Shown: positions 12,570 through 46,469 of the stretch, in pieces
How positions within the stretch are numbered: the stretch's first letter is position 1
How the letters are laid out: each line of letters starts with the position of its first letter
Assembly: GCF_026151205.1 (NCBI RefSeq)
Contig: NC_087074.1
Coordinates: forward strand, 16,040,962-16,104,961
From: Bolinopsis microptera
Lineage: Eukaryota > Ctenophora > Tentaculata > Lobata > Bolinopsidae
Direction: 5' to 3'
Length of the DNA stretch: 64,000 bases
Position numbers and translations under genes: made by a program
The notes under the pieces: generated by a model
Database searches by the model: none
What the model was told of the DNA's origin: nothing
The model's input: only the letters and a program-made list of their open reading frames with translations

Positions 12570-15500
12570 ATGGATCTTTGTAACGACTTTATCGAGCTCA
12601 ATGTGGGTATCTTTTATAGAACATTACAAAGGGTCACGGCATATTTAAGTAATTTTTTTGTAGAACTTTCTCAATGTTATTAATATTAACCAATAACCAT
12701 CTTGTACGAAAAATAAATTTAGCCTTTAATCTGTATTTGTTTACGCCCCCTGTGTAAAAATGTATTTTTTCAGGGCTTTGGAAAAGTGTACCTCGCTGAC
12801 TTGCTCTCTATCACGAAGGGTGAAGATACTTTTTGGTCGGTAAGAAAATCTGTTTTATTGTAGTACCTGTAGGGGGATGGTGGAGTATCTGGTTTTCTTT
12901 GGATCTTAAAATTCAGTCCGCAAAATCACCGATGACGTCATTCAAGTAACCGATGACGTCATTCAAGTAACTCTTTTCAGGTTCTCTCCGACAGGATCAC
13001 CTTGAAGGAACTGAACGATGGAGCAAGAAGACTGCATGAGATCGTTACTCCTGATAATCACAAGTTCACCTTGGTTTTTTGGAAGGTTTATCTACTTTAT
13101 TATATAGTTCATACTATGACAGACGAAAACTCCTAAATTTGTGGCCGATTACTCGTATCTTTTTTTTATCATGTTACCTTATAGAATATAGATACTGTTT
13201 AAAAAACGTTAGATAAAATAAAAATGGCAAATGAGGGAAGTTGGTTTAAGGGGGCATACCCCAAAACTGTGGTTTGTGCCGTCCAGACCAAATGACCTCA
13301 TAGGCAGTTCAGTGACCTTCTAGCGCACCGTTTCCACACCAAAAAAAATTATTTTGAGAATACCCATTTTTGTAATCGAGCATTTCCTGGTTAAGAGTGC
13401 AATTTTCAGAAAAAATTATTTTGTGGTTGAGACGCTATAAGTTAATCATTTCTTGCGGTATCGGGTTGAAATTTTGCTCGCCGTTTATTCACATCTATGT
13501 CAAGGTGTGTGTAAAATCTTGATATCGTATCTAGGGGGGAGCCAAGTGGATATTTGTAGATATTTGGATAATGTCATCCACTTTTTTCGTGAATTATCCA
13601 TTACAATAATCTACAAATATCTACATTTATCTACAAAAAATGTATATCTCAAATATGTGCCCAGAAATTCTACTGAATTTTTGGAGATAAATGTATAAAT
13701 TTGTAGAATTTGTAGAATTTACGTGAATTATCCATTGACAATAATCTACAAATATCTACATTTATCTACAAAAAATGTAATCTCAAATATGTGCCCAGAA
13801 ATTCTACTGAATTTTTGGAGATAAATGTATAAATTTGTAGAATGTCATCCACTATTTTCGTGGATTATCCATTCTACATTAATCTACAAATATCTACAAA
13901 TATCCACCTGGCTCCCCCCCTATCTAAAAAGGCTGGTGTGTTATGAATTTTTAAAGTCAAAAAGCTAAAATTGTCCTTTTCAGGCTTATTTTAACAAAAA
14001 GTCAGTCAGGGAAGATCAGATTATTTGATGCTTGACATCAAATTGTTCTCTGAATTCTGGCGCAGTTTTTGATGCCCTCAAAAATGTTTTTACTCATTCA
14101 CCTTCTGATCTATTGGACCTTAAAGCCAAACAACAAATTTAGGCACATTTTTCGTTTTTAATATTTACTGATTTTTCTAAACTTTTGATAGGAATGTGCT
14201 AGTGACTTTTTGAAGGGTGCAAAATAACCGCAACTAGCACATTTATATATGAGTTATGAACAACAAAACACCCTAGAATGCTTCCCTTTGAAGTTATGGG
14301 AGAAAATGTGATTTTTTGGCTTTGCAGTTAAAAAAATCACATTTTCTGATTACTAGCACATTCCTATCAAAATTTTAGAAAAATCAGTAAATATTAAAAA
14401 CGAAAAATGTGCCAAAATTTGTTGTTTGGCTTTGAGGTCCAATAGATCAGAAGGTAATGAGTAAAAACATTTTTGAGGGCATCAAAAACTGCGCCAGAAT
14501 TCAGAGAACAATTTGATGTCAAGCATCAAATAATCCGATCTTCCCTGACTGACTTTTTGTTAAAATAAGCCTGAAAACTGAAAAGGACAATTTTAGCTTT
14601 TTGACTTTAAAAATTCATAACACACCAGCCTTTTTAGATACGATATCAAGATTTTACACACACCTTGACATAGATGTGAATAAACGGCGAGCAAAATATC
14701 AACCTGATACCGCAAGAAATGATTAACTTATAGCGTCTCAACCACAAAATAATTTTTTCCGAAAATTGCACTCTTAACCAGGAAATGCTCGATTACAAAA
14801 ATGGGAATTCTCAAAATAATTTTTTTTTGTGTGGAAACGGTGCGCTAGAAGGTCCCCGAACTGCCTATGAGGTCATTTGGTCTGGACAGATTTGGGGTAT
14901 GCCCCCTTAATACTGTTAACAGAATGAGCCGCTCTATCCGTACAATTACAAAATTAGTAACATTTTCAGGTTCATAACATGAATTTTCAGGAAATATTGA
15001 AGTGGCAAGAGACAGTTCCCGGACCAGAGATGAAACATTTTATCTCTATGTTGGGGCACACTATTCAACTGTATCTATCTTGGGACCTTAATGACCAAAA
15101 CATCTTTAAGATTCTCAGATATCTCGCGTCAGGGTTTCATAAGGTATTTAAAACTGAAAACGTTACAAATTAGTGACAAATTAGTGACAAATTAGTGACA
15201 AATTAGTGACAAATTAGTGAGCAGTACTTCTTTTAAACCAATAGCATTTTTGTTTTACTTAATATTAAACCACAAAATCTCGAATCACTGTTACCTGTTG
15301 AGAATAATCACCTCAAGATTCTTCATTGCAGTTGGTAAAGTTGACAGACGACCAGGAAGCTATTGTAGGATTATTGTACAAACTTCACCAGACAGGAGGA
15401 GAGAGAAATGTTACAACCTTTCTGCTGCTCTTCAAAACCAGTGTGGGTTACTTAGACACGTTTTACTTTTATCTATATTCAATTTAATGTATCACGTGAT

Positions 15501-18327
15501 ATATCTCGGTAAAATGTTCATTGTCAGTCGGAACTCATCTCGTTAAACTCTTCCTGCTTTTTCTCAGATGGAACGACTGGTAAAACCTCTTGATAGTGAG
15601 CCCCTGGATCCGGACTCCTCAACTCCTGACCCATTAAAATATCACGTGACACAGCTACTCCAGACTCTGGAGACAGTCAGCTGCCAGACTATTGGGCAGG
15701 TGTTCCACAAGCTTCATCGTGTTGAGATCTGTAGCGCTATTAGCGCCGGATTCACGTTATATTGGGAGGCTCGCGTGGACAGGTCATTACAGTTATTTGT
15801 GCTAACAATTAACATATAAAATGTTACTTGGTAAATCCGTCTTTCCGAGTAAAATCTTATTTATTATTTCCGATCTGTAGGTGTTCAAATGTACTTTTAA
15901 TCTCTAATACTCCTGACCCCAGGCCGATGTCTTTAATTCACCGTGTTATCTACAAGCTGAGTTCTCTATGTACACTGATAAGAGATAACGAGGAGCTAAA
16001 AGTTGTGGAATGTGTCCTGGTCACCAACCTCCTCTCCTACAACTATCTCCAGAGTGCTGTAAGCGCCAATGTTCTCGTCTTCCTTGCCAGGTGATTTCTC
16101 AGTTTCATGACTTCTTGATGTTGCACAAAAGTGTTTTTTATTTATTTATTTAATTTTTAAAATTATCATTTTATTATTTTTTTAATTGACACAAAATTGT
16201 TGATAGTTTTCATTTCAGCTGTTTTATGTAACCTAATGTTGACAGGTTGGCTCCAGGAAAGTACGTTACCCAACTGGTTAACTGTAACCTAATCTTGACA
16301 GGTTGGCTCCAGGAAAGTACGTTATCCAACTGGTTAACTGTCTCAGCGACCTGGTTACGATAACTCGCTGCCAGATCAGGTCTTCTTCGCTTAAACTCGC
16401 CATCTCGCGTCTTCTTCCTGTCATGGATCAGGCTGACTCCGCTCATCTTCAGTCCAAGTTTGCTCGGTGAGCTTTGCTGTCGACCTTTTATACCCGTCTT
16501 GGCTCTTGGTTAATAAACTTTGTTAAATTATCTATCCGAATGTTAGATTTGCGTTCTCTTTTCACTTTTTTAGTCGCCCTGTCCCTCTAGTTTAGATGGC
16601 GGGCTACTGCAGTTTCTTGGAAATGACCAAAAGAAGGAGGAGATAACAAGTTCAACATTGCAGCACTGGAAATCCTCCAAGATTAAAACAGGTTCGGTAC
16701 TCAATATTATTTTTCTCACACTTTTCTTAAACGATAATAAAAAAGTAACAGTATTACTTCCTGCATCTAATAACACCTCTATAACACCTCCCCTAAGTCC
16801 TAACACCTAACACCTCTACAACACCCCTATAACACCTCCCCTAACACCTCCTCTAACACCTCCCCTAACATCTAGCACATCCGCTCTGCAGGTGATTTGC
16901 TAAAAGTTCTGCCGGTCTGCCAGAAGACTCTGCCTACTTTAACCGAGCTATCAGATCTGTTGCTTGATCTCCCCAAGTGTAGGATGAACCGAAACAAGCT
17001 GGATAATGTATATTGTTCAGTAGTCGGTTGTCTGGAGAGAGATAGTTGGAGGGAGTACAGACATGACCCGAGCAATGTTATACAGGTAATGTGATAAAAT
17101 CAGTAGTTTTTATCATCATTTTTCTGAAACTGGTGTAGTATCATTGCTTCATTGGCTTTATTGAAATGATGAATTGCCCAAACATAGTTTTTATCATAAT
17201 ATTTTAATGTAGTCTTCAGGTTCAAAGTTGTAACTTATTCATATTGATTATCATTTTAAATGTTTAGATTTTTTTGATAAATTATTAATTCAGTTGTTCC
17301 AACTGCTGCACCGTCTTCTGTCTGTCAACGATCTTTACATATCTACTCTGATTTTAGGTAGGTGATTTCCAGTAAAAAGATAGTTCCATTCTTTAACATT
17401 TCTCCTCTGCTCTTCGATTTATTTGATGAACTGGCCAATGCAAGAACGTTAGTTCTACTTATTAATGATTCGATCCATATCACTAACCGGTTGATTTGTT
17501 TAGATGTGGTGTCTAAGTTTTCCTCCTACGCTACACCAGACCCCACCATGTTCTGCCAGCTTTCCAACCAGATATTCTCCAAACTTATGAAGTGTAAACA
17601 AAACCCTTACTCGGAAAGAAAATGTCTCTTCGTGATTGCAACGTATGCTAAGGTCCGTTCTGATCGATGTATCCTATTGATGGTTATTGAAATTAAACGT
17701 TATCACGATAGTAGATCAATAATGATAAATTTTTTGCTAATAATTTGTATTGTTTTCTATTATACGTCAGAGTAGGATAAATATAAAATTAGTAAAGTAA
17801 ACATCGTTTCTGATTAAGTAAACATAAACGTTCTATATTCTCTAATCTCTCTCCCTGCCAGATGACACCATACCCCGAGTTACTCAGCAATCTGGCTCAG
17901 GACCCGGACATAAAGTCTAAACTCACAAACTTCTTCCAACACAAAGAAAGACCCTCTGATAAGACTACAGACACAGTGGCCTCCACTGAAAGGAACTCTG
18001 GTTCCAGTACTAAATTTGATGTGGAGAATATTTTGGATGTTATCAAGACCACTCCTGGACAGAGGTTAATTCGTTATTGCTTTAAGTTATGATATAATCT
18101 ATAAATGTGGATTCTATTTTGTTTTACTATCCTGTGGAATGTTGATTCTGCAATAAGTAATACCAGTATTTTAGACCTAGTTTAGTGCATAGAGTTTCAC
18201 AAACGCTAAAACTCAGCTAATTTGTTTCAGGTTGATATTACATGCCGCCATTGAAGAGATACAAACACATCCTAAAATACCCTTCTACGCTAGACAGCTA
18301 TTGTCAGCTTCAACCCCTTCAACGTAG
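12570..18327 (+). CDS. alpha-helical-repeat protein, possibly FASTK/OPR-like
   Basis: Exons join in phase: 12570-12602, 12774-12839, 12981-13085, 14991-15143 (or from 14970, same frame), 15332-15442, 15568-15782, 15923-16090, 16302-16466, 16591-16691, 16892-17085, 17294-17357, 17504-17652, 17862-18064, 18231-18327. They give at least 607 residues. The start is the first in-frame ATG of the first supported exon; coding-like sequence continues upstream to a possible acceptor at 12517, so the N-terminus is uncertain. The protein is a series of ~35-residue amphipathic helical hairpins rich in Leu, for example MSLIHRVIYKLSSLC and LDVVSKFSSYATPDPTMF. No signal or membrane segment is clear. The pattern recalls FASTK-family mitochondrial RNA-binding proteins, but I see no C-terminal RAP domain. 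The exon chain is secure, the family is a guess. Confidence 0.7.
12929..12970. repeat. 21-bp direct repeat with two perfect CRE octamers
   Basis: CCGATGACGTCATTCAAGTAA occurs twice in direct contact, just before the 3' splice site at 12980. Each copy contains TGACGTCA (12933-12940 and 12954-12961). Confidence 0.9.
13250..14906. mobile_element. TTAA-flanked foldback element, ~560-bp inverted arms
   Basis: The element begins GGGGGCATACCCC and ends GGGGTATGCCCCC and is flanked on both sides by TTAA (13246-13249, 14907-14910). Target duplication of TTAA is typical of piggyBac-type (also Kolobok) transposition. The arms are inverted almost along their whole length: 13250-13533 plus 13927-14207 pair with 14353-14906, leaving a ~145-bp unpaired centre. 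There is no transposase. It lies in the third intron of the helical-repeat gene. A second element interrupts the left arm. Confidence 0.88.
13534..13920. mobile_element. G-capped 10-bp-word element nested in the foldback arm
   Basis: Flanked by a perfect 6-bp duplication, TATCTA, at 13528-13533 and 13921-13926. The intact right arm of the host shows the empty site with one TATCTA, which proves the insertion. The ends are GGGGGGAGCCAAGTGGATAT and ATATCCACCTGGCTCCCCCC. The right end carries the 10-bp word ATCTACAAAT in tandem and the left end its complement. Inside, a ~125-bp block is directly repeated (about 13590-13706 and 13723-13842). There is no coding capacity. Confidence 0.88.
15165..15219 (+). 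repeat. 11-bp tandem repeat, 5 copies
   Basis: Unit ACAAATTAGTG, exact, in an intron of the helical-repeat gene shortly after a donor site. Confidence 0.95.
16227..16338 (+). repeat. 56-bp tandem duplication across a 3' splice site
   Basis: Two copies, 16227-16282 and 16283-16338, each with GACAG|GTTGGCTCCAGG. The second acceptor (exon start 16302) keeps the helical-repeat protein in frame. The first (16246) would shift the frame and meet a TAA. Confidence 0.9.
16776..16872 (+). repeat. minisatellite of TAACACCTC(CCC) words
   Basis: Irregular units of 10-14 bp (CTATAACACCTCCCCTAA and variants) fill the intron in front of the exon at 16892 and form a pyrimidine-rich approach to its splice site. 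Confidence 0.8.
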
Positions 18328-19074
18328 AAAATTAAACGTAGAAAACTAAACTTCGGAGTGTATTCCTCGTTCAACTTTGGCATGAAAATTCAGCTCTATA
18401 TACTAGCTTTTAGGTTAATTTCTATGAATGTTCTTGAAGTTTGAATTTTTTCAAGAGAATACCTGATTTTTTTTCTGATTAGACTCATTAATGACCATTT
18501 TATGATGTACATATTATAATATAATTATATAACATTCTCACTTATATTATTATTAGTCTAATATGCAGAAAAAAAAATCAAATATTCTCTTGAAAGAATC
18601 GTCAAATGAGAGTTAATGACTGTATAGAGTGTATACTATATCTACTACTTAATCAGAATTCTGATTGTTCTTGTATAGTTCCTAATCATTGAAATTAAAA
18701 AGCTGTAATAAGTTCAAAGGTTATCAAATGTCAGCGATAAATGAAACGCTCATCAAAACTGTTGTGCAAATGTTGCTATGTTTTGTCGTCGTTTTCATTA
18801 TTGATGATATTGACATAGTTGATTCTGTGCCTTGTGTTTTCCCTCATTTTGTAATTTCATTCGATTCTAACCGCACATTTTAAGCCGGTTTTAGTCGACA
18901 GTAGATGACATTTTTTTATGCACTTTAATTTATCATTTTTATGCAAATATTTGATTACTTATTTACTCTATTTTCTATAAACGGTTAAGCTAGAATCAAT
19001 CTTTTACTTATTCAATAAGTAAAACTAATATTGAAATGTTAATGTTATAACATTTATGAGGCCGACTTGCAAAC
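18328..19074. other. 3' UTR and intergenic sequence
   Basis: AT-rich sequence following the stop of the helical-repeat gene. No clear canonical AATAAA close to the stop was noted and no further exon is supported. Confidence 0.4.
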
Positions 19075-22309: not shown

Positions 22310-22315
22310 AGAATA

Positions 22316-23007
22316 GGGGGGGGGGGCCAACCATATTAAAGTATATTAAAGTATATCCCCGGGTCAAAATCGGAAAAAATCCTACATTTTAATATACTTT
22401 AATATACCTACAATTAGAAGATTTATATTCTTCGTTAAGATTTACATGATGAACTATATTTTTCACTCAGATTCGCAAGATAAGCCTGTTTTAGGACTAG
22501 TACATGAATTTCCATCAAGATTGGTCAAAAATTGGCTGAGCTATGAGCTTAAAAAAATATGCCCATATTTGGGCATACGCTTTTGCCCAAATTCGCTTTT
22601 GCCCAAATTCGATAAAATTTCAATATTTTTTAATGAGACTAACTCTATGTGAAAGATATAACTCAGTGTTTGTTGAATATAGTGGATACTAAGTAAAAAG
22701 ACCTCCATGAACAAAATTGGGAAAATTGCACATAATATCTCGGTTCGGAATACTAGCCAAAATGACTTCATTAAAATTGAAATAACTCCATCAGTTTTCA
22801 ATATTTTTTCAAGAACTTTTTGGAATCGATAAAGAATTGCATTTCAAGCTTATTTTGGGCAACAATTTTTGATGTAGGCCTCCAAGGAGATAGGGATATA
22901 TTAAAGTATATTAAAGTATATTAAAGTATATTAAAGTATATCCCCGGGTCAAAATCGGGAAAAATCCTACATTTTAATATACTTTAATATGGTTGGCCCC
23001 CCCCCCC
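22316..23007. mobile_element. G-capped 10-bp-word element, complete
   Basis: Flanked by a perfect 6-bp duplication AGAATA (22310-22315 and 23008-23013). It starts with 11 G then CCAACCATATTAAAG and ends with its complement and 11 C. Each end is a module: tandem ATTAAAGTAT words, a ~30-bp core beginning CCCCGGGTCAAAATCGG, then inverted words. The core has the same orientation at both ends (22357-22386 and 22940-22970). The right module has more word copies than the left. The ~480-bp middle has no convincing ORF. Confidence 0.88.
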
Positions 23008-23013
23008 AGAATA

Positions 23014-23819: not shown

Positions 23820-26277
<2,458 letters not shown>

Positions 26278-26330
26278 TGGTATGACAAGTGTACCTACAA
26301 TAAAACGTGCAGCAGCAGGAGCAGCAGGAG

Positions 26331-27156: not shown

Positions 27157-27194
27157 CTTTAGTTAAATAGTTTTAATCGTTACAAGACCGAAAC

Positions 27195-30932: not shown

Positions 30933-31906
30933 TAATGTTGTCTTGTTACAATCCTTGTTACAGAGCACAAAGTGTAGCTCACCACTGTCATTAGTATCAT
31001 GCTGGCAATCACAAACCTATAATCACATTTTATGCAGAGCTGCTTGGTGTCATATATCATTTCTAAACTGCGTTCTGAGTAGTGCCCGTTATATTGTCGT
31101 CCTCCCTCCCCGCATTTTTACTTTTCTCTTACTTTTCATACATATAATTCCCGTTGTATTGCCACAAAACTTATCGAAGTAATTAAAATTTTGATAATTT
31201 GGTCATCTTTAGTAGAGCTCGGTGTAATTATCTGATTAGCTGTTTCCAGTTTTTTGTACACACTCACACTCACACGTGTTTGTTGCATGATAAGGTGAGC
31301 GAGTCACGGTAGCCCTACTCCCGGTACTCATACCTTCTGTTGTCAGCTGTGCTCTTCTCCTCCACCTTCTTCTTCTCTTCAACCTAGCTTTGTTGTGCGA
31401 CGTGTTACTAATGTGTAGATTGTAACACTACACTCTTCTAAATATAGTCTTTATTGTGTTGTTCAGTTTTCGTTGGTTCAGGTGCAACTTGAGAGTGCCC
31501 ATCTGTGAAACTCTGGTGAGAACTTGTGATCAGTACAAATTACAAATTACAATGGTGAGCGCATTTTATACTCACCCAACAAGTTGAGGTTCCCGGAATA
31601 TACACTAACTTCTACCTTCTAACCTTGTACCCGTTGTAACCCAGTATTCTATTAATCAATGCTGTGTACCTGTACTATGACTCGCCGTTTAAGCACATGG
31701 TTCCGCGCTACTGTTCAGTGCACAGACTTCTCTAACTACACACTCTAACAAACTGGACAAATCATTCCTTATTCGATCCCAACCTCTGTAACCACTAATC
31801 ACTAGAAATAATTCTTGAATTATCTCTGTTTACAACTACCATAATATCACAATTTGAACTCCCGTCCGGCATCTTATTTCCGGACAAAATTCTCGTCAAA
31901 CCAGCT
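30933..31906. other. non-coding between arrays
   Basis: No exon or repeat family recognised. Confidence 0.35.
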
Positions 31907-34900
31907 TATTAAGACAGTCCTGGTGCTGGTCCCTGTATTCAGGAGACGTATTAAGATAGTCCTGGTGCTGGTCCCTGTATTCAGGAGACGTATTAAGATA
32001 GTCCTGGTGCTGGTCCCTGTATTCAGGAGACGTATTAAGATAGTCCTGGTGCTGGTCCCTGTATTCAGGAGACGTATTAAGATAGTCCTGGTGCTGGTCC
32101 CTGTATTCAGGAGACGTATTAATACAGTCCTGGTGCTGGTCCCTGTATTCAGGAGACGTATTAAGATAGTCCTGGTGCTGGTCCCTGTATTCAGGAGACG
32201 TATTAAGATAGTCCTGGTGCTGGTCCCTTTATTCAGGAGACGTATTAAGATAGTCCTGGTGCTGGTCCCTGTATTCAGGAGACGTATTAAGATAGTCCTG
32301 GTGCTGGTCCCTGTATTCAGGAGACGTATTAATACAGTCCTGGTGCTGGTCCCTGTATTCAGGAGACGTATTAAGATAGTCCTGGTGCTGGTCCCTGTAT
32401 TCAGGAGACGTATTAAGATAGTCCTGGTGCTGGTCCCTGTATTCAGGAGACGTATTAAGATAGTCCTGGTGCTGGTCCCTGTATTCAGGAGACGTATTAA
32501 GATAGTCCTGGTGCTGGTCCCTGTATTCAGGAGACGTATTAAGATAGTCCTGGTGCTGGTCCCTGTATTCAGGAGATGTATTAAGATAGTCCTGGTGCTG
32601 GTCCCTGTATTCAGGAGACGTATTAAGATAGTCCTGGTGCTGGTCCCTGTATTCAGGAGACGTATTAAGATAGTCCTGGTGCTGGTCCCTGTATTCAGGA
32701 GACGCATTAAGATAGTTCTGGTGCTGGTCCCTGTATTCAGGAGACGTATTAAGATAGTTCTGGTGCTGGTCCCTGTATTCAGGAGACGTATTAAGATAGT
32801 CCTGGTGCTGGTCCCTGTATTCAGGAGATGTATTAAGATAGTCCTGGTGCTGGTCCCTGTATTCAGGAGACGTATTAAGATAGTCCTGGTGCTGGTCCCT
32901 GTATTCAGGAGACTTATTAATATAGTCCTGGTGCTAGTCCCTGTATTCAGGAGACGTATTAAGATAGTCCTGGTGCTAGTCCCTGTATTCAGGAGACGTA
33001 TTAAGATAGTCCTGGTGCTGGTCCCTGTATTCAGGAGACGTATTAAGATAGTCCTGGTGCTGGTCCCTGTATTCAGGAGACGTATTAAGATAGTCCTGGT
33101 GCTGGTCCCTGTATTCAGGAGACGTATTAAGATAGTCCTGGTGCTGGTCCCTGTATTCAGGAGACGTATTAAGATAGTTCTGGTGCTGGTCCCTGTATTC
33201 AGGAGACGTATTAATATAGTCCTGGTGCTGGTCCCTGTATTCAGGATACGTATTAAGATAGTCCTGGTGCTGGTCCCTGTATTCAGGAGACGTATTAATA
33301 TAGTCCTGGTGCTGGTCCCTGTATTCAGGAGATGTATTAAGATAGTCCTGGTGCTGGTCCCTGTATTCAGGAGACGTATTAAGATAGTCCTGGTGCTGGT
33401 CCCTGTATTCAGGAGACGTATTAAGATAGTTCTGGTGCTGGTCCCTGTATTCAGGAGACGTATTAATATAGTCCTGGTGCTGGTCCCTGTATTCAGGATA
33501 CGTATTAAGATAGTCCTGGTGCTGGTCCCTGTATTCAGGAGACGTATTAAGATAGTCCTGGTGCTGGTCCCTGTATTCAGGAGATGTATTAAGATAGTCC
33601 TGGTGCTGGTCCCTGTATTCAGGAGACGTATTGAGATAGTCCTGATGCTGATCCCTGTATTCAGGAGACGTATTAATATAGTCCTGGTGCTGGTCCCTGT
33701 ATTCAGGAGACGTATTAAGATAGTCCTGGTGCTGGTCCCTGTATTCAGGAGATGTATTAAGATAGTCCTGGTGCTGGTCCCTGTATTCAGGATACGTATT
33801 AAGATAGTCCTGGTGCTGGTCCCTGTATTCAGGAGACGTATTAAGATAGTCCTGGTGCTGGTCCCTGTATTCAGGAGACGTATTAAGATAGTCCTGGTTC
33901 TGGTCCCTGTATTCAGGAGACGTATTAAGATAGTCCTGGTTCTGGTCCCTGTATTCAGGAAACGTATTAAGATAGTCCTGGTGCTGGTCCCTGTATTCAG
34001 GAGACGTATTAAGATAGTCCTGGTGCTGGTCCCTGTATTCAGGAGACGTATTAAGATAGTTCTGGTGCTGGTCCCTGTATTCAGGAGACGTATTAATATA
34101 GTCCTGGTGCTGGTCCCTGTATTCAGGATACGTATTAAGATAGTCCTGGTGCTGGTCCCTGTATTCAGGAGACGTATTAAGATAGTCCTGGTGCTGATCC
34201 CTGTATTCAGGATACGTATTAAGATAGTCCTGGTGCTGGTCCCTGTATTCAGGAGACGTATTAATATAGTCCTGGTGCTGGTCCCTGTATTCAGGAGATG
34301 TATTAAGATAGTCCTGGTGCTGGTCCCTGTATTCAGGAGACGTATTAAGATAGTCCTGGTGCTGGTCCCTGTATTCAGGAGACGTATTAAGATAGTTCTG
34401 GTGCTGGTCCCTGTATTCAGGAGACGTATTAATATAGTCCTGGTGCTGGTCCCTGTATTCAGGATACGTATTAAGATAGTCCTGGTGCTGGTCCCTGTAT
34501 TCAGGAGACGTATTAAGATAGTCCTGGTGCTGGTCCCTGTATTCAGGAGATGTATTAAGATAGTCCTGGTGCTGGTCCCTGTATTCAGGAGACGTATTGA
34601 GATAGTCCTGATGCTGATCCCTGTATTCAGGAGACGTATTAATATAGTCCTGGTGCTGGTCCCTGTATTCAGGAGACGTATTAAGATAGTCCTGGTGCTG
34701 GTCCCTGTATTCAGGAGATGTATTAAGATAGTCCTGGTGCTGGTCCCTGTATTCAGGATACGTATTAAGATAGTCCTGGTGCTGGTCCCTGTATTCAGGA
34801 GACGTATTAAGATAGTCCTGGTGCTGGTCCCTGTATTCAGGAGACGTATTAAGATAGTCCTGGTTCTGGTCCCTGTATTCAGGAGACGTATTAAGATAGT

Positions 34901-35677
34901 CCTGGTTCTGGTCCCTGTATTCAGGAAACGTATTAAGATAGTCCTGGTGCTGGTCCCTTTATTCAGGAGACGTATTAATACAGTCCTGGTGCTGGTCCCT
35001 GTATTCAGGAGACGTATTAAGATAGTCCTGGTGCTGGTCCCTGTATTCAGGAGACGTATTAAGATAGTCCTGGTGCTGGTCCCTGTATTCAGGAGACGTA
35101 TTAAGATAGTCCTGGTGCTGGTCCCTGTATTCAGGAGATGTATTAAGATAGTCCTGGTGCTGGTCCCTGTATTCAGGAGACGTATTAAGATAGTCCTGGT
35201 GCTGGTCCCTGTATTCAGGAGACGTATTAAGATAGTCCTGGTGCTGGTCCCTGTATTCAGGAGACGTATTAAGATAGTCCTGGTGCTGGTCCCTGTATTC
35301 AGGAGACGCATTAAGATAGTTCTGGTGCTGGTCCCTGTATTCAGGAGACGTATTAAGATAGTTCTGGTGCTGGTCCCTGTATTCAGGAGACGTATTAAGA
35401 TAGTCCTGGTGCTGGTCCCTGTATTCAGGAGATGTATTAAGATAGTCCTGGTGCTGGTCCCTGTATTCAGGAGACGTATTAAGATAGTCCTGGTGCTGGT
35501 CCCTGTATTCAGGAGACTTATTAATATAGTCCTGGTGCTAGTCCCTGTATTCAGGAGACGTATTAAGATAGTCCTGGTGCTAGTCCCTGTATTCAGGAGA
35601 CGTATTAAGATAGTCCTGGTGCTGGTCCCTGTATTCAGGAGACGTATTAAGATAGTCCTGGTGCTGGTCCCTGTATT
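31907..35677. repeat. 42-bp minisatellite, ~90 copies, with higher-order structure
   Basis: The unit is TATTAAGATAGTCCTGGTGC followed by TGGTCCCTGTATTCAGGAGACG. The array covers 3.77 kb without losing register. Because 42 is a multiple of three, all copies stay in one frame. Plus strand 31854-35693 is open for 1279 codons (14-residue unit VLVLVPVFRRRIKI); minus strand 35836-31874 is open for 1320 codons (unit NTGTSTRTILIRLL). Variant units recur at fixed distances: 966 bp (23 units; GTATTGAG at ~33631 and ~34597) and 2604 bp (62 units; GACGCATT at 32701 and 35305, GACTTATT at 32911 and 35515). This shows block duplication. I treat it as a non-coding satellite, not a gene. Confidence 0.93.
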
Positions 35678-37317
35678 GATGGGAGTTGGGTGAGACACAA
35701 TGCCTGCCCTGTCCTTCGTCCCGGGCCGTGCAATGTCAGGGTTTACTACCTCACAAAAAGAGGACTTCTTTCTTGGGCCCGCCAGGTGCTGCACTGTACA
35801 TACCATGTCCCTATCATGGCGACCGGTCTCGTTCACTCATCAAATCGACCAATTAGCTCATGTCAGATCCAAGTTCAGATCCAGCCCGGCTAATATTTTA
35901 CACCGATCGTATACGCCAACTTACTACAGTTATATTTGTGAAGGAGCACCTTTTAGCCCACAATTTCTTAGCCGCGCAATTACACGACTAAGTCATATAC
36001 ATACGCAACTCCGGGCTGCGTCTCGCAAAGCAACGCATACTCAAATTATATGCCTGATTTTCTGACAGCTTGCTGTTCTTTGTGTAGCAGGAGGGTATTA
36101 TACTATGTTATCGACTTTTAATGACCGCCTGTACTGCTACTACAATTTAACCGGTGTCAATGCTGGCTATACTTAGTAATATAAGCAATATAAGTCTTGC
36201 TCGCGCTTTTTGGGGGCGCTCACAGGAAGGTTAAATAACGGGGAGAGAAGGTCGCTATAATAGTATAATAGCAATCATTTGTGTTCTAACCTTCTCATTG
36301 GACATTGTATTAGATTTCCCAAATGTACGATCTATTTCTACCGTTACGGGTGCATATTATGGTAAGCGCATTCCCAAATCATTTAGACATAAAAGTGGAA
36401 CTAAATCTCTAAAACATCTGATGGTATTTTGCTCCGGTTTTCTTGACGTAGTGCGTTTAGTATTGTGACAGTTATTGTGTGAAGTATTTTGTGAAGTGAA
36501 ATGTTGAGTTACTGTGAAGCATTACCTGAAGTACAATGAAATGGGAGCCAGGGAGTGGTTCGGTTATATGGCGTGTGTTTATTTAAAGCAGCTCCAACTT
36601 CCCATGTAATGTAAGATTCAGTTGTTGTAGGGTCGTCATAAAGCTGAGCACTTTCTTTTTTTCTCTCTCTCTCTCTCTCTCTCTCTCCACCTGTTCACAC
36701 AGTGTGTTGTGTTAATTGGTTGATGAGATGTGCTTGTCTTGCGTTTTAATAATCATGCATTCGAATCAATTTAACGATTTATTGAATGTTACGTTTTCTT
36801 TTAGTCATCCATCTTCGCTCTGCGGCTCAAAACGTGTAAACTAAGATTTGAGCAAGGTTTAAAATTATGAAATTCCACAGAAATTCGCCGTTGATTTCTC
36901 TAACATGTAGTAGATAGTGGTATTTTATCCGCATGGCAGTAATGATGATCTAATTAACAGATGATTAAGTTCAGAGACCGCTACTTTCTAAAAGTGGATC
37001 GGTTTATCAGGTACACCAGCTGCTTCCAGCTCCTTTCATTCTTTTAACATGTATTAATATATCCTGCGATAAGTCTCTCTATCTCCCTTTGTATTATTGC
37101 ACTAAACAGTTACAAAGACCATGATAATGAGAGCTTTTCTCTCTTTCTTACTTTTTTTTCTAGAATCCGAGGGAAAACTGAACATTCAACACTACCTTTA
37201 CTCCATCGTGTACCGTTTAATTATTAAAGCTTATACGCGAACATGTCAGAAAACAGTCTGCCTTTTTCAAACCCTGCTGACATTACTGCGACACTCCCGT
37301 TAAACGAACCAATTTGA
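35678..37317. other. non-coding; short (CT)n at ~36661-36688
   Basis: No supported exon. Open frames directly after the 42-bp array are not convincing. Confidence 0.35.
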
Positions 37318-38834: not shown

Positions 38835-40140
38835 AGTGCCACTTCATGCCATTTAACTGTGACTGCTGGCTTCTATATTGTATATAAGTATATAGTTTCA
38901 ATCGAGCTGATTTGATAACCCATCAAATGTGTTGCGTTGCAAAATTGAGATTTTGGTGGTTTACGACTGAATATGTGTCTTGGCAGGTTGCAGGTTGCAG
39001 GTTGATGTCAAAATTTGATTGCATCAAGTGAAGGTTGTATCGTTTTGGAAATTGTTATTTAATTGAATTTCTTCATTCCTTGAGTTAGGGGCAGTCATTG
39101 CGAAATAACTAAACCTCTTATCTAGTATCTTGTAGTTTGCGCCCTTATATATTATCATGTTGTCGATAAGAAATAATCGTTTACCATCTATTCGAGTGAT
39201 TGTTTTTCTCGCAAGTGTTTTTACTAAAAGTATTTCAATGTTGATATGATTCAGTGTAGCAAGGTATTCTGCTAATTAGCGCAGAATTTGTTAGAGGTTG
39301 GATAAAGACTGTTAGCCTTAACAGGCTTAATTACCGAACTTTATCACTAGTGCCCCTATGTTAACTGCAACTAATAGAACAGCCTGCCAGTTTCCAAGGA
39401 ACACTTTTTGATCTCCAGTAATTGCAATGATTGGGGAGCCTTTTACACCAATTTACTCACTTGCCCTGCTTGAACGCCTATATCCCTTGAGTTATAAATT
39501 ATTTGGTTTCTCATACTTACAGAATACAGAGCCAGGTTCAGAATTACTACACTCGGCTCGCCGTTCTATCCAGTATTTTATTCCCAGGGTCGGAAAATAG
39601 ATTACATCCAACTGCAGTCTGTGTATATAACCATATTATTGATAGGTTTAACTAATTTCAGTGTAGCAGTAGTATACACCAATATTGATAGGATTGTGGT
39701 CGGACTGAAGTCTGCACAAATACCGCAATGCTGTGCAGCTCTTAATTAGGCTGGAACGGAAATGGGAAACATGAAACGCTGGCTGTTTCAACTTTCAACT
39801 CCATTATCGGTATTATAAACTGCGGATAATTGCGACTCTAAGCCTCCAAGCAGATAAAAAGCTGATTGAGGACGGCTTTGTAATTATATTCTTCCCTGAC
39901 AAAAGACAGGTTACTCTACCCCGAACATATGTATACACATTGTCTCCCCCGTAGTAGTAGTAGGTATAGTACACACATTTCCTGAGTTCGGTGCGGTGGC
40001 CAGCCTTCTGTGTGTACAATGTAGATCATGTGTACAATGTAGATGTGTAGGTTTTTTGGTTTGTGTGTATGTGTGTCTGTTTGTTTGCCTGATTGTGTAT
40101 TTGTTTGCATGTAAGTGTGCATGTGTGTACCTCCAGTATG
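38835..40140. other. non-coding, nothing recognised
   Basis: AT-rich intergenic-type DNA. Confidence 0.4.
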
Positions 40141-40407
40141 TACACACACTAACTGTGCACACACTAACTGTGCACACACTAACTGTGCACGCACTAACTG
40201 TGCACACACTAACTGTGCACACACTAACTGTGCACACACTAACTGTGCACACACTAACTGTGCACACACTAACTGTACACACACTAACTGTGCACGCACT
40301 AACTGTGCACACACTTATTGTGCACACACTAACTGTGCACGCAATAACTGTGCACGCACTAACTGTGCACTCAAACAAGCACACACTCACTGTGCACTAA
40401 CTGTGCA
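40141..40407. repeat. 15-bp minisatellite, ~17 copies
   Basis: Unit ACTAACTGTGCACAC with a few variants (GCACGC, TTATTG). The 15-bp length keeps several frames open. Confidence 0.93.
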
Positions 40408-41680
40408 CACACTCCCTCGTCCATCCTCCGCACAGCAAATAAGGAGGACGATTTGTCATGCAAGAATTATCATTACATAAAGTGAACGGGATTGTTAAAC
40501 ATGGCTTGTTACGGAGAATGAGCAGTTTGCAAACATCGGTTAAACTGGTCAGCTGCATTTGTTGTACGTGAATGTGTGTGTGTACTTGTGTTTAGCTCTA
40601 TTTCCCCTGTCTAGTTTATTCTACCCTGTATTGTTGTGTTTTCAGTGCGGTTTTTAACAAGCTTTCTCTTGTGCAGATCTCGTTCTGTTGTTCGTTATTC
40701 AATATCAAATTTCGCCTGTTTAGTACATTAGTGTTTAGTGCACACTACTGTTAGTGCTTCTCTGCTGAGATGCTGCGAAGGCGGTGGAATTTTTGTGGGA
40801 AGTACTTAGACACAACATCTGAAGTTGAAATGTAGATTGTATACAAAGGTTGTAACCCACGTGACTTAGTCACATGTCCCACGTGCCAAACCCACACATT
40901 ATAACACACACTTCACACTCATTTCATCTACATCACACAGTTTACATTTCTCTGCCACACTGCACACAAGTAAGTACACTGTATTATTATTGTACCGAAC
41001 ATCTAGCTAGCTATATACTTATATAAGACACTTGTCAGGCTTTCCTCCATCCAGCTACTACTCTGCCAGTTGTTACCCACCAATACGACATATGTATCAT
41101 ACGTTCTCAACATGACACGTTGTTTAGGCTGTAGTGTTGCTATGGTAACGGTGCACAGGGTATGTAATCGGATGAGTTGTGAGCCAGTAGCTTAAATCAA
41201 TCAACCAGTGACCCCCCGTGTCCCATCTTGCTCCAGATTAAATAGAGTTTGGTTTTTTATTTTCTCATTCCGTTATTGCTCCCTATATTTACTCTTCTTT
41301 CCTCCCGATTTGTATGCTGTGTAATGTGTATGCAGTTATAAGTTGTATGTGACTGTAACATTCCTCATCGTTTAATGCCGGATTTCACGGTTATCACATT
41401 ATTACCAAACGTAAATATTGCTTACGCTGAGTGTATTTACTGTTTTACTAATCGTATTGTACTCGCTCAACAATACGCCCTGGCCCCTCAATCTCCTCAG
41501 CGATAGACTTTCTTTTCTCTTTTTCTCACAGAACGATGTGTGTCACAGCTCTGACAATGTTTTGGCTGTTTTGCAACAAACAGTGTGTAATATAGTTGCG
41601 AGCAGTAGAGTCATCATCATACTGTCTCAGTGTAATATATTGTCCTGCTGTATATCACTATAAATAATAACACGCTAATA
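40408..41680. other. non-coding, nothing recognised
   Basis: No exon or named repeat is supported. Confidence 0.35.
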
Positions 41681-42140
41681 TTAAACCAGTAATCTGCCTA
41701 CTCTTCTTACATTTCACTTTTCACGTTGTGCTTCCTCGAGAGAGTGAGTGTGAGTGAGTGTGAGTGAGTGTGAGTGTGAGTGAGTGAGTGTGAGTGTGAG
41801 TGTGAGTGTGAGTGTGAGTGTGAGTGTGAGTGAGTGTGAGTGAGTGAGTGTGAGTGAGTGTGAGTGTGAGTGTGAGTGTGAGTGTGAGTGTGAGTGTGAG
41901 TGTGAGTGTGAGTGTGAGTGAGTGAATGTGACTGAGTGAGTGTGAGTGAGTGTGAGTGTGAGTGTGAGTGTGAGTGTGAGTGTGAGTGTGAGTGAGTGTG
42001 AGTGTGAGTGAGTGTGAGTGTGAGTGTGAGTGTGAGTGTGAGTGTGAGTGTGAGTGAGTGTGAGTGTGAGTTAAACGAGTAATCTGCCTACTCTTCTTAC
42101 ATTTCACTTTTCACGTTGTGCTTCCTCGAGAGAGTGAGTG
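41681..42140. repeat. GTGAG/GTGTGAG array flanked by a 70-bp direct repeat
   Basis: A ~330-bp array of mixed GAGT and GTGA words (41741-42070) lies between two near-identical 70-bp copies (41681-41750 and 42071-42140) that start TTAAAC(C/G)AGTAATCTGCC and end in CTCGAGAGAGTGAGTG. Confidence 0.9.
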
Positions 42141-42555
42141 AGCTGCATTATTATTGATACATCGCGCTATCAGTACATTTGTATTTCTCTCTCGCTGTGT
42201 AAATCTAATTATTTCTCTCCAATAATATCTTTGTGATTTGCCTTGATCGGTAGCTTGGGGGTATTATGTAGTGTTTGGTATGTTACACGAGCGTGATTTG
42301 TTTGACAGTTCATCCAATTTTAATCCAATTAGATCCAATTTCAATGTGCACTTCTGTTTAACCTACAGTTTTCTTAAATTAAGCAGGTGTCGGAGTTGTT
42401 GTGAATGACTGAGATTTGAATATCAGGTGCACTTTATTTGGAAACACTAGACCCCCTGCTAGGTGACCTAGAAAATCGCTGAAAATATTCAAAAACTAGA
42501 GAGCAGTGTAACTAGATACTGTGAGTCATATTATTATTACTTCCTTCTGTTGTAT
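42141..42555. other. non-coding between arrays
   Basis: Nothing recognised. Confidence 0.35.
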
Positions 42556-43306
42556 GAGTGAGTGAGTGAGTGAGTGAGTGAGTGAGTGAGTGAGTGAGTG
42601 AGTGAGTGAGTGAGTGAGTGAGTGAGTGAGTGAGTGAGTGAGTGAGTGAGTGAGTGAGTGAGTGAGTGAGTGAGTGAGTGTAAGTGTGAATGTGAGTGAG
42701 TGTGAATGTCAGTGAATGTCAGTGAGTGAGTGAGTGTGTTAGTGAGTCAGTGAGTGAGTGAGTCAGTGAGTCAGTGAGTCAGTGAGTCAGTGAGTCAGTG
42801 CGTCAGTGAGTCAGTGAGTGAGTCAGTGAGTCAGTGAGTCAGTGAGTCAGTGAGTGAGTCAGTGAGTCAGTGAGTCAGTGAGTCAGTGAGTCAGTGAGTC
42901 AGTGAGTCAGTGAGTCAGTGAGTGAGTGAGTCAGTGAGTCAGTGAGTGAGTGAGTGAGTGAGTGAGTGAGTGAGTGAGTGAGTGAGTGAGTGAGTGAGTG
43001 AGTGAGTGAGTGAGTGAGGGAGTGTGAGGGAGTGTGAGGGAGTGTGAGGGAGTGAGTGATTGACTGAGTGAGTGTGAGTGAGAGTGAGTGAGTGAGTGAG
43101 TGTGTGTGAGTGAGTGAGTTTGAGTGTGTGAGTTTGAGTGTGAGTGAGTGAGTGAGTGAGTGAGTGAGTGAGTGAGTGAGTGAGTGAGTGAGTAAGTGAG
43201 TGAGTGAGTGAGTGAGTGAGTGAGTGAGTGAGTGAGTGAGTGAGTGAGTGAGTGTGAGTGTGAGTGTGAGTGTGAGTGTGAGTGTGAGTGTGAGTGTGAG
43301 TGTGAG
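42556..43306. repeat. (GTGA)n / (GTCA)n tetranucleotide array, ~750 bp
   Basis: GAGT units with blocks in which GTGAGTCA alternates (~42740-42940), then GAGT again and finally GTGTGA. Minus-strand Thr-His-Ser-Leu frames are artefacts. Confidence 0.95.
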
Positions 43307-43806
43307 TCTCTGTTGGTGGTGCGCAAGTGTGAAACATGCGATGTCTATGTTAAAAGTTAATTTAACTTTGTTTACACTCTTTATCATTAGTCGCAGTGAA
43401 TTCATACCTGGTTATTGTTATTGCAACAACAAAAACATTCCACATGTACACACGAGGTTTAAATGACAACAAGCTGTGTTCTTTGTTTACATTCGTCGGT
43501 AAATTAATCTAATTATTCATCAAATTAACCACCATCGACTTCCTACATTTCCTACATTTTTTGATTTGTCTCCGTTGCGTTTCTTCCCTTCTTCTCCCCC
43601 CGGCGCTCCCGGGACCACATTGCCGAATGTTTATATCTGGGAACAATGATGTACGTACTGCAGCCGTTCCCACGGAGTAATCAAGCTACCCTCGCTCAGG
43701 CAAGTCACGTGATGCCCATATAAGGGAGCAGCTCAGGCAAGGCATTTTTGCTAGATCTCGGTTGAGAACTATTTCTCTAATTCTCTATCCGTGAGATTAT
43801 AAAATC

Positions 43807-46469
43807 GGGGGGGGGGGGGGGGGGGGGTGTAACCCAAAAAAAACCCAACTCCTACCCAAGAAAAGGTAATACTGGGATTGGGTTTTTTTGTGTTTTTTTG
43901 GGTTTTTTAAACAAAATTTAAACAAAATTCTAGCCATTTCATTAATTGTATTGAATGTGAATTATTTCCCACTGAGTCTTACCTACGTGTTGTCCTCATG
44001 TCTTAACTTAATAGATAGTTTACATAGTATATAAGTGTGTTTATAATTATATTGATAGTATGTTATAACGATAGCAAACATGATGTCTCGTTCATCGAGA
44101 TATAATCCATATGAATGCACAAAGTGGAAATGTGCCAAACGTGGCAAATGTGTTCCCCTGTCATGGAAGGAGGCTATGACGAAGGTCAAGGGCAAGTCAA
44201 AGCACATGACTTAAATTACTTGACGGCTTCAGAGTCCGAGTCTCGATGATGTGTCTCCAAAGCTTTCTGTCCACCATAAGCTCCTTAATCTCCCCAGTGT
44301 TCTTGAATCCAGTGTCACTTATTAGGTTATCGACGAAGGTGAGCGGTGGTCTACCCCTCCCTGGTTCCCAAAGGAGAAGTTGGTGTGCTGCCAGGTCATC
44401 ATGTCGCTGGATGTGCCCAGCCAACCTCATTCTTCTGGCCTGTATCTTCGAAATAACTCTTGGGAGTGATCCAAAGACCTCCTTGTTGGTGCGATGTCCT
44501 CTCCAGTCCACGTTTAGGGCCATCCGAAGCATTCTACTGTAACATCCGTCTATTCTTTTCTTCAACGATTCTGTTATTGTCCACGTTTTCGTTCCATACA
44601 GGAAGATTGATTCAACCGTAGCTTGAACAGACGGATCTTTAAATCTCGGCGCAAATTGGACCTCCACATAGCCTACATTTTGTGGTAGGCAGCCCATGCC
44701 TTGGCCTTGCGTAACTTAAAGTCGTGCTCCGTTGTACTAAAATCCTCAACTTTTTCTAAGGCATGTCCGTCCTTAGAAACTATTGTGTGTGGCTCCTCTC
44801 CTACTAAATTAACTGTAAGATGCTTGGTTTTAGACAAAAAAGATTTCATGCCTCCTCATCAGATGAGGCTTTTGTAGGACTGTAGCATGTGATGACAAAT
44901 GACAATGAGCCTGGGCTCTCCATTAAGAGACATGGTGAGGATCCTTGCGCTGTAAGATTTTATAACTTTATAAGACTTATAGCCTCATTTGCGCTGCTGT
45001 CCTCGTCAAGATGATTTCTACTCTCCCATTAGAAGCGCCAGCTGCGTTTCTCCACGCAGATGAGATCACTGGATGAATCCCTTTGTTCATCTTTTCTATT
45101 CTGGTATTCTCAGCAATCAGCATGCACTACCCGATGTTCGATTCTTGCAGGGCAAGGATGTGCAGCTTGCTTCGAGAAAATAGTTCTGCAAGTTCGATGC
45201 GTTTGTGCTGTTCTCTGGCTGTTCTTATGTTAAATGTGCTAACCTTAGCAGTCCTTTTACATGATACAATACAATTGATGTTCATATTTTTTTGATGTTT
45301 TCTTGTTTGACTTTCTGTAGAAATAGGTTGTCGTGTTGTGGAGACCGAGTCATCAGCTTCTGTAATAGCAGCGTAATTACCCCGGCAACCACTTCCACTA
45401 GAAAAATAAGGGGCTTTAACCCTTAAGCTGTTGATAAACTTCATCTTGACTTTTCAGTTGGCTCACAATCCTGTGCAGTGCCCTGCACATTGGCAGTGGA
45501 TTGTGTTCTTAACTCTTGCGCCACTAAAAGGTTAAGGGCATCCGCTTGAACAATAGCCATCTTTAACTCTCACCATAATATCTTGGGTATCTTGAGCATG
45601 TAATTGCACGAACATATGCTATACAAGACAAATGTGACACTTCCTTTTTCTACCCAACAGTATCAGTTGTAATCCTTACCCAATCGTCACCTGCTCCAGT
45701 GTGGGACTTTCCGATTTTATCCCAAAGCATAAGGAGGTTAGATAAGAGTGAGAACAGAGCTACACTTTAGCGGGGACTAACCCTTCCCTTGACTACCTCG
45801 TTACCCGGTACCCCGGGCATAGGGATTAGGGAGCCGTATCCTGACTACCAGAGTGTGGTCCAGTCTAGCTGGGTCATAGTAGACTAGGTTGAACAGGGTA
45901 ACAGCCAACACCTCTTTAGCTACTGTGCAATCCACAGTAAAGATTTACGAGTCTCAAAGCCTCTTGTAGACCAAGAGTTAAGGAGTCAATAGATCAAATT
46001 ATTGAACTTCCGGGGTTCGATGTCTCCCGTCGACTGTCCTGCCTTTAGCCTGGACCCCCTGTCCAGTATCCAGTCTTCACCACGCGGAGGTAGTGGCTTT
46101 CATCATGCTGTCCGATGAGTGTCTGGAAGAGGGCACCAGCAGGATATCCCTTTTCAAAGTTCTGGGAGCCTCACATCAGACCAGGGCTTCCACCCAGCTT
46201 CTATCCAGCGGTGACGCCTTGGGCCACCTAAGCTTCACACAACCATTGAAAGACCACCTGCCTACTTGTAAACATTTTGACGATGCGAATATTACAGTCG
46301 AGGGTCTGATGCTGTACATTCTCAGTGTACAGCATCATACCCAAATGAAAAATTTGTAAAAAACCCAAAAAAAACCCAACTCCTACCCTGAAAAAGGTCA
46401 TACTGGGATTGGGTTTTTTTGGGTTTTTTTGGGTTACACAGCCCCCCCCCCCCCCCCCCCCCCCCCCCC
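43807..46469. mobile_element. G-capped 10-bp-word element enlarged by an internal LINE
   Basis: A perfect 6-bp duplication AAAATC flanks it (43801-43806 and 46470-46475). It starts with 21 G then TGTAACCCAAAAAAAACCC and ends with GGGTTACACAGC and 28 C. Both ends carry a module of ~85 bp in the same orientation: AACCCAAAAAAA words, a core beginning CTCCTACCC and ending ATACTGGGA, then GGGTTTTTTT 10-bp words. The left module is ~43828-43915 and the right ~46358-46437. Most of the ~2.4 kb between them is a broken minus-strand LINE. The original element was probably only a few hundred bp. Confidence 0.82.
44197..45444 (-). pseudogene. broken LINE inside the G-capped element
   Basis: Minus strand. 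45444-45127 holds the start of an apurinic-type endonuclease (STFNIRTAREQHKRIELAEL, ending LALQES). 44697-44197 holds the region downstream of a reverse transcriptase (TKTWTITESLKKRIDGCYSR, RMALNVDWRGHRTNKEVFG, RRMRLAGHIQRHDD, GRGRPPLTFVDNL), typical of non-LTR elements related to RTE/craTE-like sequences in marine invertebrates. The catalytic reverse transcriptase core between them is missing; 44700-45120 has only traces. Sequence up to ~46100 (for example the stretch at 45800-46080) looks like the element's 5' region. It cannot be active. Confidence 0.8.

What the first reader, a model, noticed from the sequence alone, without database searches (positions are those of the whole stretch)
13534..46469. 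Three unrelated-looking elements share one plan: G/C-run caps, 6-bp target duplication, 10-bp word arrays, and a same-orientation core at both ends
Seen: 13534-13920 (TSD TATCTA, word ATCTACAAAT), 22316-23007 (TSD AGAATA, word ATTAAAGTAT) and 43807-46469 (TSD AAAATC, word GGGTTTTTTT). Each begins with a G-run and ends with a C-run. In each, both ends are modules made of word array, ~30-bp core, inverted word array, and the core keeps the same orientation left and right. The word period is 10 bp, about one helical turn, in all three, yet the word itself differs. Known: 6-bp duplications occur in a few DNA transposon groups (for example Polinton and IS3EU-like), but I know of none with this end structure. 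Inference: one transposition machinery recognises architecture, or the words are rewritten by slippage or templated repair while the caps and core are kept.
Basis: partly seen in the sequence, partly recalled or inferred. Interest (0 to 1): 0.88.

Follow-up and report, generated by a model that had tools for sequence, protein, structure and literature searches.

The report
G-capped transposons in a comb jelly
Three DNA segments in this comb-jelly genome are real jumping elements of several families that share one unusual end design and probably one kind of transposase that current protein-family libraries do not recognise.

Summary
The window lies in a 264.65-Mb genome, the comb jelly Bolinopsis microptera by a contig-length match. 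In the window, 3 of 5 G6+/C6+ pairs within 10 kb have identical flanking 6-mers; 0.002 were expected. Empty sites for families 1 and 2 show one TSD copy and put the caps inside the element. Families 1 and 2 have at least 40 copies each; family 3 has 155 core matches. Two further families share the plan, one of them weakly. End modules are direct repeats inside inverted caps. Cores lie on one strand in 44 of 44 family-3 pairs among the 100 listed matches, 12 of 12 family-2 and 19 of 19 readable family-1 copies. Caps look like slippage of a short G terminus. Families 3 and 5 keep parts of one protein without Pfam, NCBIfam or convincing PDB match. Best reading: one unassigned group of cut-and-paste transposons. 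The transposase role is inferred; no intact autonomous copy was read. The nearest published design, KolobokP, differs in TSD and repeat length.

The parts
13528..13533 (.). family 1 left target duplication TATCTA
   Evidence: empty sites in L035 and in window 14508-14754
13534..13920 (+). family 1 element, 387 bp, caps G6 and C7
   Evidence: 40 scored of 180 candidates, all 40 full or near-full length at 98-100% identity
13573..13599 (+). family 1 left core
13844..13870 (+). family 1 right core, same orientation
13921..13926 (.). family 1 right target duplication TATCTA
14508..14754 (-). second copy of the host repeat without the element (empty site for family 1)
   Evidence: 237 of 247, contiguous across the junction with a single TATCTA; the only gap (7 bp) is 53 bp away from it
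22310..22315 (.). family 2 left target duplication AGAATA
22316..23007 (+). family 2 element, 692 bp, caps G11 and C11
   Evidence: 1345 candidates, 40 scored, 98-100% identity
22333..22405 (+). family 2 left module (words, core 22357-22382, inverted words)
   Evidence: 72 of 73 identical to the right module in direct orientation
22918..22990 (+). family 2 right module (core 22942-22967), direct repeat of the left one; two extra words upstream
23008..23013 (.). family 2 right target duplication AGAATA
43801..43806 (.). family 3 left target duplication AAAATC
43807..46469 (+). family 3 element, 2663 bp, caps G21 and C28; internally deleted and interrupted
   Evidence: (155 core matches genome-wide)
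43831..43904 (+). family 3 left module (core 43850-43882)
   Evidence: 69 of 74 identical to the right module in direct orientation
44146..44211 (+). remnant of the element's gene (P0003 residues 126-147)
   Evidence: (50% identity, E 0.06 in the window copy; 55%, E 0.008 in L049): weak on its own
44197..44715 (-). LINE-like reverse-transcriptase fragment lying between the two gene remnants
   Evidence: no Pfam hit, LINE-like by recalled resemblance only; in L049 a neighbouring ORF has a weak Exo_endo_phos match, E 0.11
46255..46323 (+). continuation of the element's gene remnant (P0005 residues 33-57, P0003 residues 145-167)
   Evidence: 80% identity to P0005 over 46255-46329, E 1.3e-5; P0003 E 0.54
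46362..46435 (+). family 3 right module (core 46381-46413)
46470..46475 (.). family 3 right target duplication AAAATC

Best explanation
These are non-autonomous members of one group of cut-and-paste DNA transposons of a comb jelly. Shown: they insert at AT-rich sites, duplicate 6 bp (sometimes 7, once 5), start with a G run and end with a C run, and carry at each end a roughly palindromic array of words of about one helical turn around an asymmetric core. The two end modules are direct repeats of each other (clear in families 1-4, weak in family 5), while the cap and outermost words are inverted. Inferred: the words are family-specific transposase binding sites on one face of the helix, so any array fits its own transposase while the plan stays. 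The enzyme is likely the P0003-like protein whose pieces remain in families 3 and 5, acting by a DDE-type mechanism. The direct orientation was fixed in each family's master copy, by tandem duplication of a palindromic module or a composite-like stage. The long caps arise by poly-G slippage once the interrupting base is lost.
For: TSDs and controls. Empty sites for families 1 and 2. High copy number. Direct alignment of the 150 bp inside the caps: families 1-4 give 74/88, 72/73, 69/74, 99/101 identities with scores 59, 71, 64, 95.5 against 48.5, 37, 29, 36.5 inverted, while a TTAA-flanked element of the same genome is a plain inverted repeat, 109/110. Cores on one strand in 44 of 44, 12 of 12 and 19 of 19 readable copies. 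Word periodicity. Cap length: 23 ends with the A interruption have median 7, 19 without have median 15; long G/C runs far outnumber A/T runs outside the listed elements (137 against 8 per Mb at 10 or more). Protein: the family-3 remnant matches P0003 at 50% over 98% of the query region, E 1.8e-82; family 5's ORF matches the C-terminus of the same protein (family-3 read-through against family 5 E 9e-6 with BLOSUM45 and no composition adjustment; 111-aa part alone 1 of 2000 shuffles; P0003 against family 5 E 0.001, 2 of 5000 shuffles, 0 of 480 control translations).
Against: The catalytic residues of the presumed transposase were not seen. The structure prediction failed (mean pLDDT 33). Families 1, 2, 4 and 7 show no trace of the protein and family 6 only a borderline one (3 of 300 shuffles). 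Family 5 has period 9, its direct (36.5) and inverted (37.0) end scores tie in L036, 39.5 against 36 in L047, and 2 of its 4 fully read copies have no TSD of 5 bp or more. The left gene remnant of family 3 is weak on its own (E 0.008 and 0.06). Part of the cap difference is trivial, since losing the A joins its neighbours to the run.
Confidence: 0.6

Rival explanations
1. The elements belong to an already named superfamily (a lineage of hAT, P, Kolobok or MULE type) whose ends are merely unusual in this animal.
For: These groups generate TSDs between 4 and 10 bp (passage in PMC3706591); GG...CC termini fit the 5'-RR and YY-3' rule stated for Kolobok (passage in PMC9587614). A weak hAT dimerisation hit (C1:4702499, E 2.2e-5) lies 4 kb from an unpaired family-3 core (C1:4698439).
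Against: P0003 has no Pfam or NCBIfam match up to E 10. None of 88 MULE matches and none of the 150 scored hAT matches (of 365 candidates) lies inside one of the 44 family-3 pairs (compared by eye); but family-3 copies are deletion derivatives, so this is weak evidence.
Confidence: 0.3
2. The P0003-like protein is a captured passenger and the real transposase is something else.
For: Family 3 also carries LINE-like pieces, and P0004 and P0005 are Bolinopsis gene models in which the protein is joined to other genes.
Against: Two families with different words keep homologous C-terminal pieces in the same orientation next to the right end. In family 3 the LINE-like stretch lies between two parts of the gene, which suggests that the gene was there first. 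Relatives with open frames of 529-590 aa occur at 5 places in the genome.
Confidence: 0.2
3. Non-autonomous IS3EU or Polinton relatives moved by an integrase-type enzyme, since both give 6-bp TSDs.
For: TSD length.
Against: [quoted passage not shown] here the termini are GG..CC. The coding remnants and P0003 match no rve or DNA polymerase B model in Pfam. Polinton termini are recalled only and were not tested.
Confidence: 0.05
4. Simple-sequence coincidence: chance G and C runs with chance flanking matches in a repeat-rich region.
For: Long G runs are common in this genome.
Against: Controls, P about 1e-9 in the window alone, empty sites, many near-identical copies.
Confidence: 0.01

Closest known systems
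KolobokP (composite-like Kolobok lineage, PMC9587614; passages read)
   Same: DNA transposon with direct repeats at both ends that contain their own inverted repeats; GG..CC fits its 5'-RR and YY-3' termini. Solo repeats and multimers exist there; here one solo-sized family-5 unit and one head-to-tail family-3 pair are known by position only.
   Different: Its repeats are about 450 or 660 bp with 11-18 bp TIRs and TSDs of 3-5 bp; here they are 73-101 bp in families 1-4, palindromic word arrays, caps only on the outside, TSD mostly 6. The seven phyla listed do not include Ctenophora.
IS3EU / GingerRoot (PMC10045372; passages read)
   Same: TSD of 6 bp.
   Different: TA..TA termini (GingerRoot occasionally TG..CA) and an IS3/IS481-related transposase.
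Dada (PMC3706591; passages read)
   Same: TSD of 6-7 bp.
   Different: No terminal inverted repeats, and insertion in specific small RNA genes.
KDZ (Kyakuja, Dileera, Zisupton; PMC12730594; passages read)
   Same: TSDs of similar length (7-8 bp).
   Different: Kyakuja 7 bp with CA..TG and no TIR, Zisupton and Dileera 8 bp.
Foldback / Galileo (P superfamily; abstract starts in search listings, otherwise recalled)
   Same: Long internally repetitive ends; multiple transposase binding sites in them are reported for Galileo.
   Different: There the long ends are inverted repeats; here the modules are direct repeats and the TSD is mostly 6 bp.

Membership tests
IS3EU | 6-bp TSD | tested here: met
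   32 of 40 copies exact 6 bp
IS3EU | TA..TA termini | tested here: not met
   GG..CC termini fixed by empty sites in families 1 and 2; rule from a passage of PMC10045372
KolobokP | direct repeats at both ends with inner inverted repeats | tested here: met
   clear in families 1-4, weak in family 5
KolobokP | repeats of about 450 or 660 bp | tested here: not met
   73-101 bp in families 1-4
KolobokP | TSD of 3-5 bp | tested here: not met
   6 bp in 32 and 7 bp in 5 of 40 copies
KolobokP | Kolobok-type transposase | tested here: inconclusive
   P0003 without any Pfam match; the N-terminal half was not read
Dada | insertion in small RNA genes, no TIR | tested here: not met
   32 TSDs are AT-rich and varied; caps and outer words are inverted
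KDZ | 7- or 8-bp TSD | tested here: not met
   6 bp in 32 of 40, 7 bp in 5 of 40; rule from passages of PMC12730594
hAT | hAT dimerisation domain in the element | tested here: inconclusive
   none of 150 scored matches (of 365 candidates) inside the 44 family-3 pairs; copies are deletion derivatives
MULE | MULE domain in the element | tested here: inconclusive
   none of 88 matches inside the 44 family-3 pairs
Polinton | rve integrase and DNA polymerase B genes | not tested
   no genome search was run for them; the coding remnants have no such Pfam match

The most novel reading that the evidence does not exclude
A new superfamily of eukaryotic cut-and-paste transposons in comb jellies, with a transposase outside all curated families, which recognises the architecture (helically phased palindromic word arrays in direct orientation inside inverted G caps) rather than a fixed sequence, so that each family runs its own word while the machinery stays the same.
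Probability: 0.4. Interest if true: 0.75.

Novelty: new variant of a known kind. Interest (0 to 1): 0.6.

Why it matters
End recognition is among the strongest constraints on a DNA transposon. Families that share plan, TSD and probably enzyme ancestry but not end sequence would let one ask directly how a transposase and its binding sites change together. Long direct-repeat ends were reported for KolobokP as unlike any other DNA transposon (PMC9587614, passage); a second, independent case would make their origin testable. The caps also expose a striking poly-G expansion tendency in this genome, with the same terminus present at many ages.

Tried and rejected
Chance or simple repeats: rejected. 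The 8.67-kb family-3 copy as the autonomous one: the 2.5 kb read from it hold a retrotransposon pol frame on the other strand with reverse transcriptase, RNase H and integrase domains; the rest of that copy was not read. The protein search with family 5's ORF found nothing; the one with the 186-aa family-3 ORF found two short pieces. MULE and hAT searches gave no autonomous copy. A common core sequence was looked for and not found apart from families 5 and 6. Structure prediction of P0003 gave mean pLDDT 33, so no fold search was made. Viral contigs: one stretch matched a pattern, none encodes a relative of P0003. A palindrome scan of G-run ends was too weak to be used as a classifier. An apparent empty site for the family-4 copy lacks 7 bp and is not counted. 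Rows left out of counts: the divergent family-2-like copy in L027 (no TSD) and the doubtful pair in L032.
Full report
Where it is. The window is G000:C3:16040962-16104961 of a 264.65-Mb genome in 232 contigs. A protein found later (P0004) is an NCBI record of Bolinopsis microptera on a contig of 20,932,313 bp, exactly the length of contig C6; the species is a lobate comb jelly. The identification rests on this length match.

Observation. The three elements are as described. The window has 3 G runs and 8 C runs of six or more; 5 G...C pairs lie within 10 kb, and 3 of them, the three elements, have identical 6-mers outside (0.002 expected; P about 1e-9). In 264 kb held, identical flanks peak sharply at 6 bp and do not occur in the wrong order at 6 bp; 17 of those 22 pairs are copies of one family, because the stretches were fetched around them. 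Over 40 copies of families 1-5 with both ends read, 32 TSDs are exactly 6 bp, 5 are 7 bp, 1 is 5 bp and 2, both of family 5, have no match of 5 bp or more. By family the exact 6-bp count is 17 of 21, 10 of 12, 2 of 2, 1 of 1 and 2 of 4. A divergent family-2-like copy in L027 without a TSD is left out of this count.

Insertion proven. The flanks of the window's family-1 copy, joined with one TSD, match an uninterrupted host repeat in L035 (237 of 240, no gap) and a second arm of the same repeat inside the window at 14508-14754 (237 of 247, with the only gap 53 bp from the junction). A family-2 copy (L010) has its empty site in L022 (166 of 167, no gap). So in these two families the caps belong to the element and the TSD is real. 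No such site was found in held DNA for the window's own family-2 and family-3 copies.

Copy numbers. Family 1: 40 of 180 candidates were scored, all 98-100% identical to the query. Family 2: 1345 candidates, 40 scored, 98-100% identical. Family 3: 155 core matches with up to 2 mismatches; an exact 22-base end pattern had given only the window's own copy. Family 5: 67 ends. These are lower bounds. Two more families with both ends were found in fetched DNA, family 4 (L022:2798-4381) and family 5 (L036:553-3533), and two with one end, family 6 (L014) and family 7 (L023).

End anatomy. The 150 bp inside the caps align better in direct than in inverted orientation for families 1-4: 74/88, 72/73, 69/74 and 99/101 identities, direct scores 59, 71, 64 and 95.5 against inverted 48.5, 37, 29 and 36.5. 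Family 5 is a tie in L036 (36.5 against 37) and slightly direct in L047 (39.5 against 36), though the direct match there includes the core; its left module is not clearly palindromic. A TTAA-flanked, G-capped element of the same genome is a plain inverted repeat (109/110) and serves as contrast. The modules of families 1-4 are themselves roughly palindromic, and caps and outermost words are inverted between the ends. Core strand: family 3, 44 of 44 pairs among the 100 listed of 155 matches, all in left-right order, 12 unpaired, none opposite; family 2, 12 of 12; family 1, 19 of 19 in which both cores were readable, of 21. Left and right cores keep fixed differences in these copies, so the arrangement is inherited from a master copy. 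Five families out of five (four if family 5 is set aside) is suggestive, not proof, of a rule between families.

Words. A direct period of 10 bp (families 1-4, 6, 7) or 9 bp (family 5) exceeds all of 100 shuffles at each of 12 ends. The words differ, and so do the cores apart from a likeness of families 5 and 6.

Caps. Family-1 ends in which the A of GnAGCC survives have a median of 7 G (n = 23); ends without it have a median of 15 (n = 19; Mann-Whitney P 3.7e-6, copies not independent). About two bases of this difference are trivial, because losing the A joins its neighbours. Outside the listed elements 248 kb hold 137 G/C runs of 10 or more per Mb but only 8 A/T runs, in AT-rich DNA; other G-capped elements were not masked. 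The caps are best read as the ordinary G start of a TIR plus a tendency of uninterrupted G runs to grow. Assembly or sequencing error at homopolymers was not tested.

Coding remnants. Of 44 family-3 core-to-core spans, 25 are 3.1-3.6 kb. The copy L049 (TSD AACGAA, caps 8 and 10) has a 186-aa ORF and, after one stop, 111 more residues. The read-through finds P0003 (464 aa, ENA, organism not given) at 50% identity over 98% of the query region, and Bolinopsis gene models P0004 and P0005. The left part of family 3 encodes a stretch like P0003 residues 126-147 (weak, E 0.008 in L049) and the right part of the window copy resumes at residue 145 (E 1.3e-5 with P0005), with LINE-like sequence between. 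Family 3 is thus best read as an internally deleted, LINE-interrupted derivative of an element with a P0003-like gene running left to right. Family 5's ORF, also ending near its right end, aligns with the C-terminus of the same protein. Relatives at about 25-40% identity, many with open frames of 250-590 aa, occur elsewhere in the genome (150 of 161 candidates scored). P0003 has no Pfam or NCBIfam match; three of its four PDB matches are to an acidic stretch and the fourth has E 0.61. From memory only, the motif series (QD..H..KK.RN, later PWL....CE..F...R) resembles DDE transposases with a helical insertion; this was not tested.

Mechanism. Shown: insertion with 6-bp duplication, defined termini, plan, copy history. 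Well supported: cap slippage. Inferred: DDE-type cut and paste by a P0003-like enzyme; words as phased binding sites that change together with it; direct orientation from duplication of a palindromic module. A 120-bp family-5 unit with both outward ends (C3:11618839-11618958) has the size of a solo module, and C8:6259539-6266008 looks like two family-3 elements head to tail; both are known by position only. They recall the solo and multimer forms of KolobokP (PMC9587614). The search for solo family-2 modules did not complete (last try).

Comparison with known kinds. IS3EU has 6-bp TSDs but TA..TA termini (PMC10045372). Dada lacks TIRs and targets RNA genes (PMC3706591). KDZ lineages give 7- or 8-bp TSDs (PMC12730594). 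KolobokP shares direct terminal repeats but with other lengths and TSDs. Only passages of these papers were read. Searches for comb-jelly transposons, terminal direct repeats and 6-bp TSDs listed no title or abstract start that describes this group; passages of two comb-jelly genome papers (PMC12221973; PMC11797021) do not either. Repbase and Dfam could not be searched, so a library entry is possible.

Verdict. A real, well supported set of transposon families with an unusual and consistent end design; probably one group with an unassigned transposase; not shown to be a new superfamily.

Noticed in passing
L022-L041 and window: Great excess of long G/C homopolymers over A/T ones outside the listed elements (34 against 2 runs of 10 or more in 248 kb).
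   Followed up: partly
L013:503-1314; L028:9674-9689; L040:6018-6390: G-run termini next to TTAA; the first is an element with a 110-bp true inverted repeat: another transposon type whose termini also carry long G runs.
   Followed up: partly
L030:7557-7696: Tandem array of TCACCCTGATAAACATTAA units separated by G runs of 7 to 21.
   Followed up: no
L048 (G000:C4:8922300-8924799): Retrotransposon pol frame (reverse transcriptase, RNase H, integrase domains) nested in a family-3 copy; a second family-3 pair on C2 has nearly the same 8.68-kb span.
   Followed up: partly
P0004 and P0005: Bolinopsis gene models in which pieces of the P0003-like protein are joined to a 7TM-like protein (weak Pfam match) and a DUF3517 protein named FAF-Y: transposon exons or annotation chimeras.
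   Followed up: no
window 1414-3721 (-): Transposase-like open frames (by recalled resemblance; the two tested have no Pfam match); the frame 2301-2735 has relatives at 78-79% identity elsewhere in the genome, one in a 717-aa frame.
   Followed up: partly
window 60598-63963 (-): 1121-aa open frame of a LINE (endonuclease and reverse transcriptase).
   Followed up: no
window 31845-35836: About 4 kb of tandem repeat open in several frames on both strands.
   Followed up: no
G000:C8:6259539-6266008: Two family-3 elements head to tail, the right core of one 82 bp from the left core of the next.
   Followed up: no
L010:2426-2637 against L022:2750-4430: The site matching the family-4 insertion lacks 7 bp at the junction: older deletion or excision footprint.
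   Followed up: no
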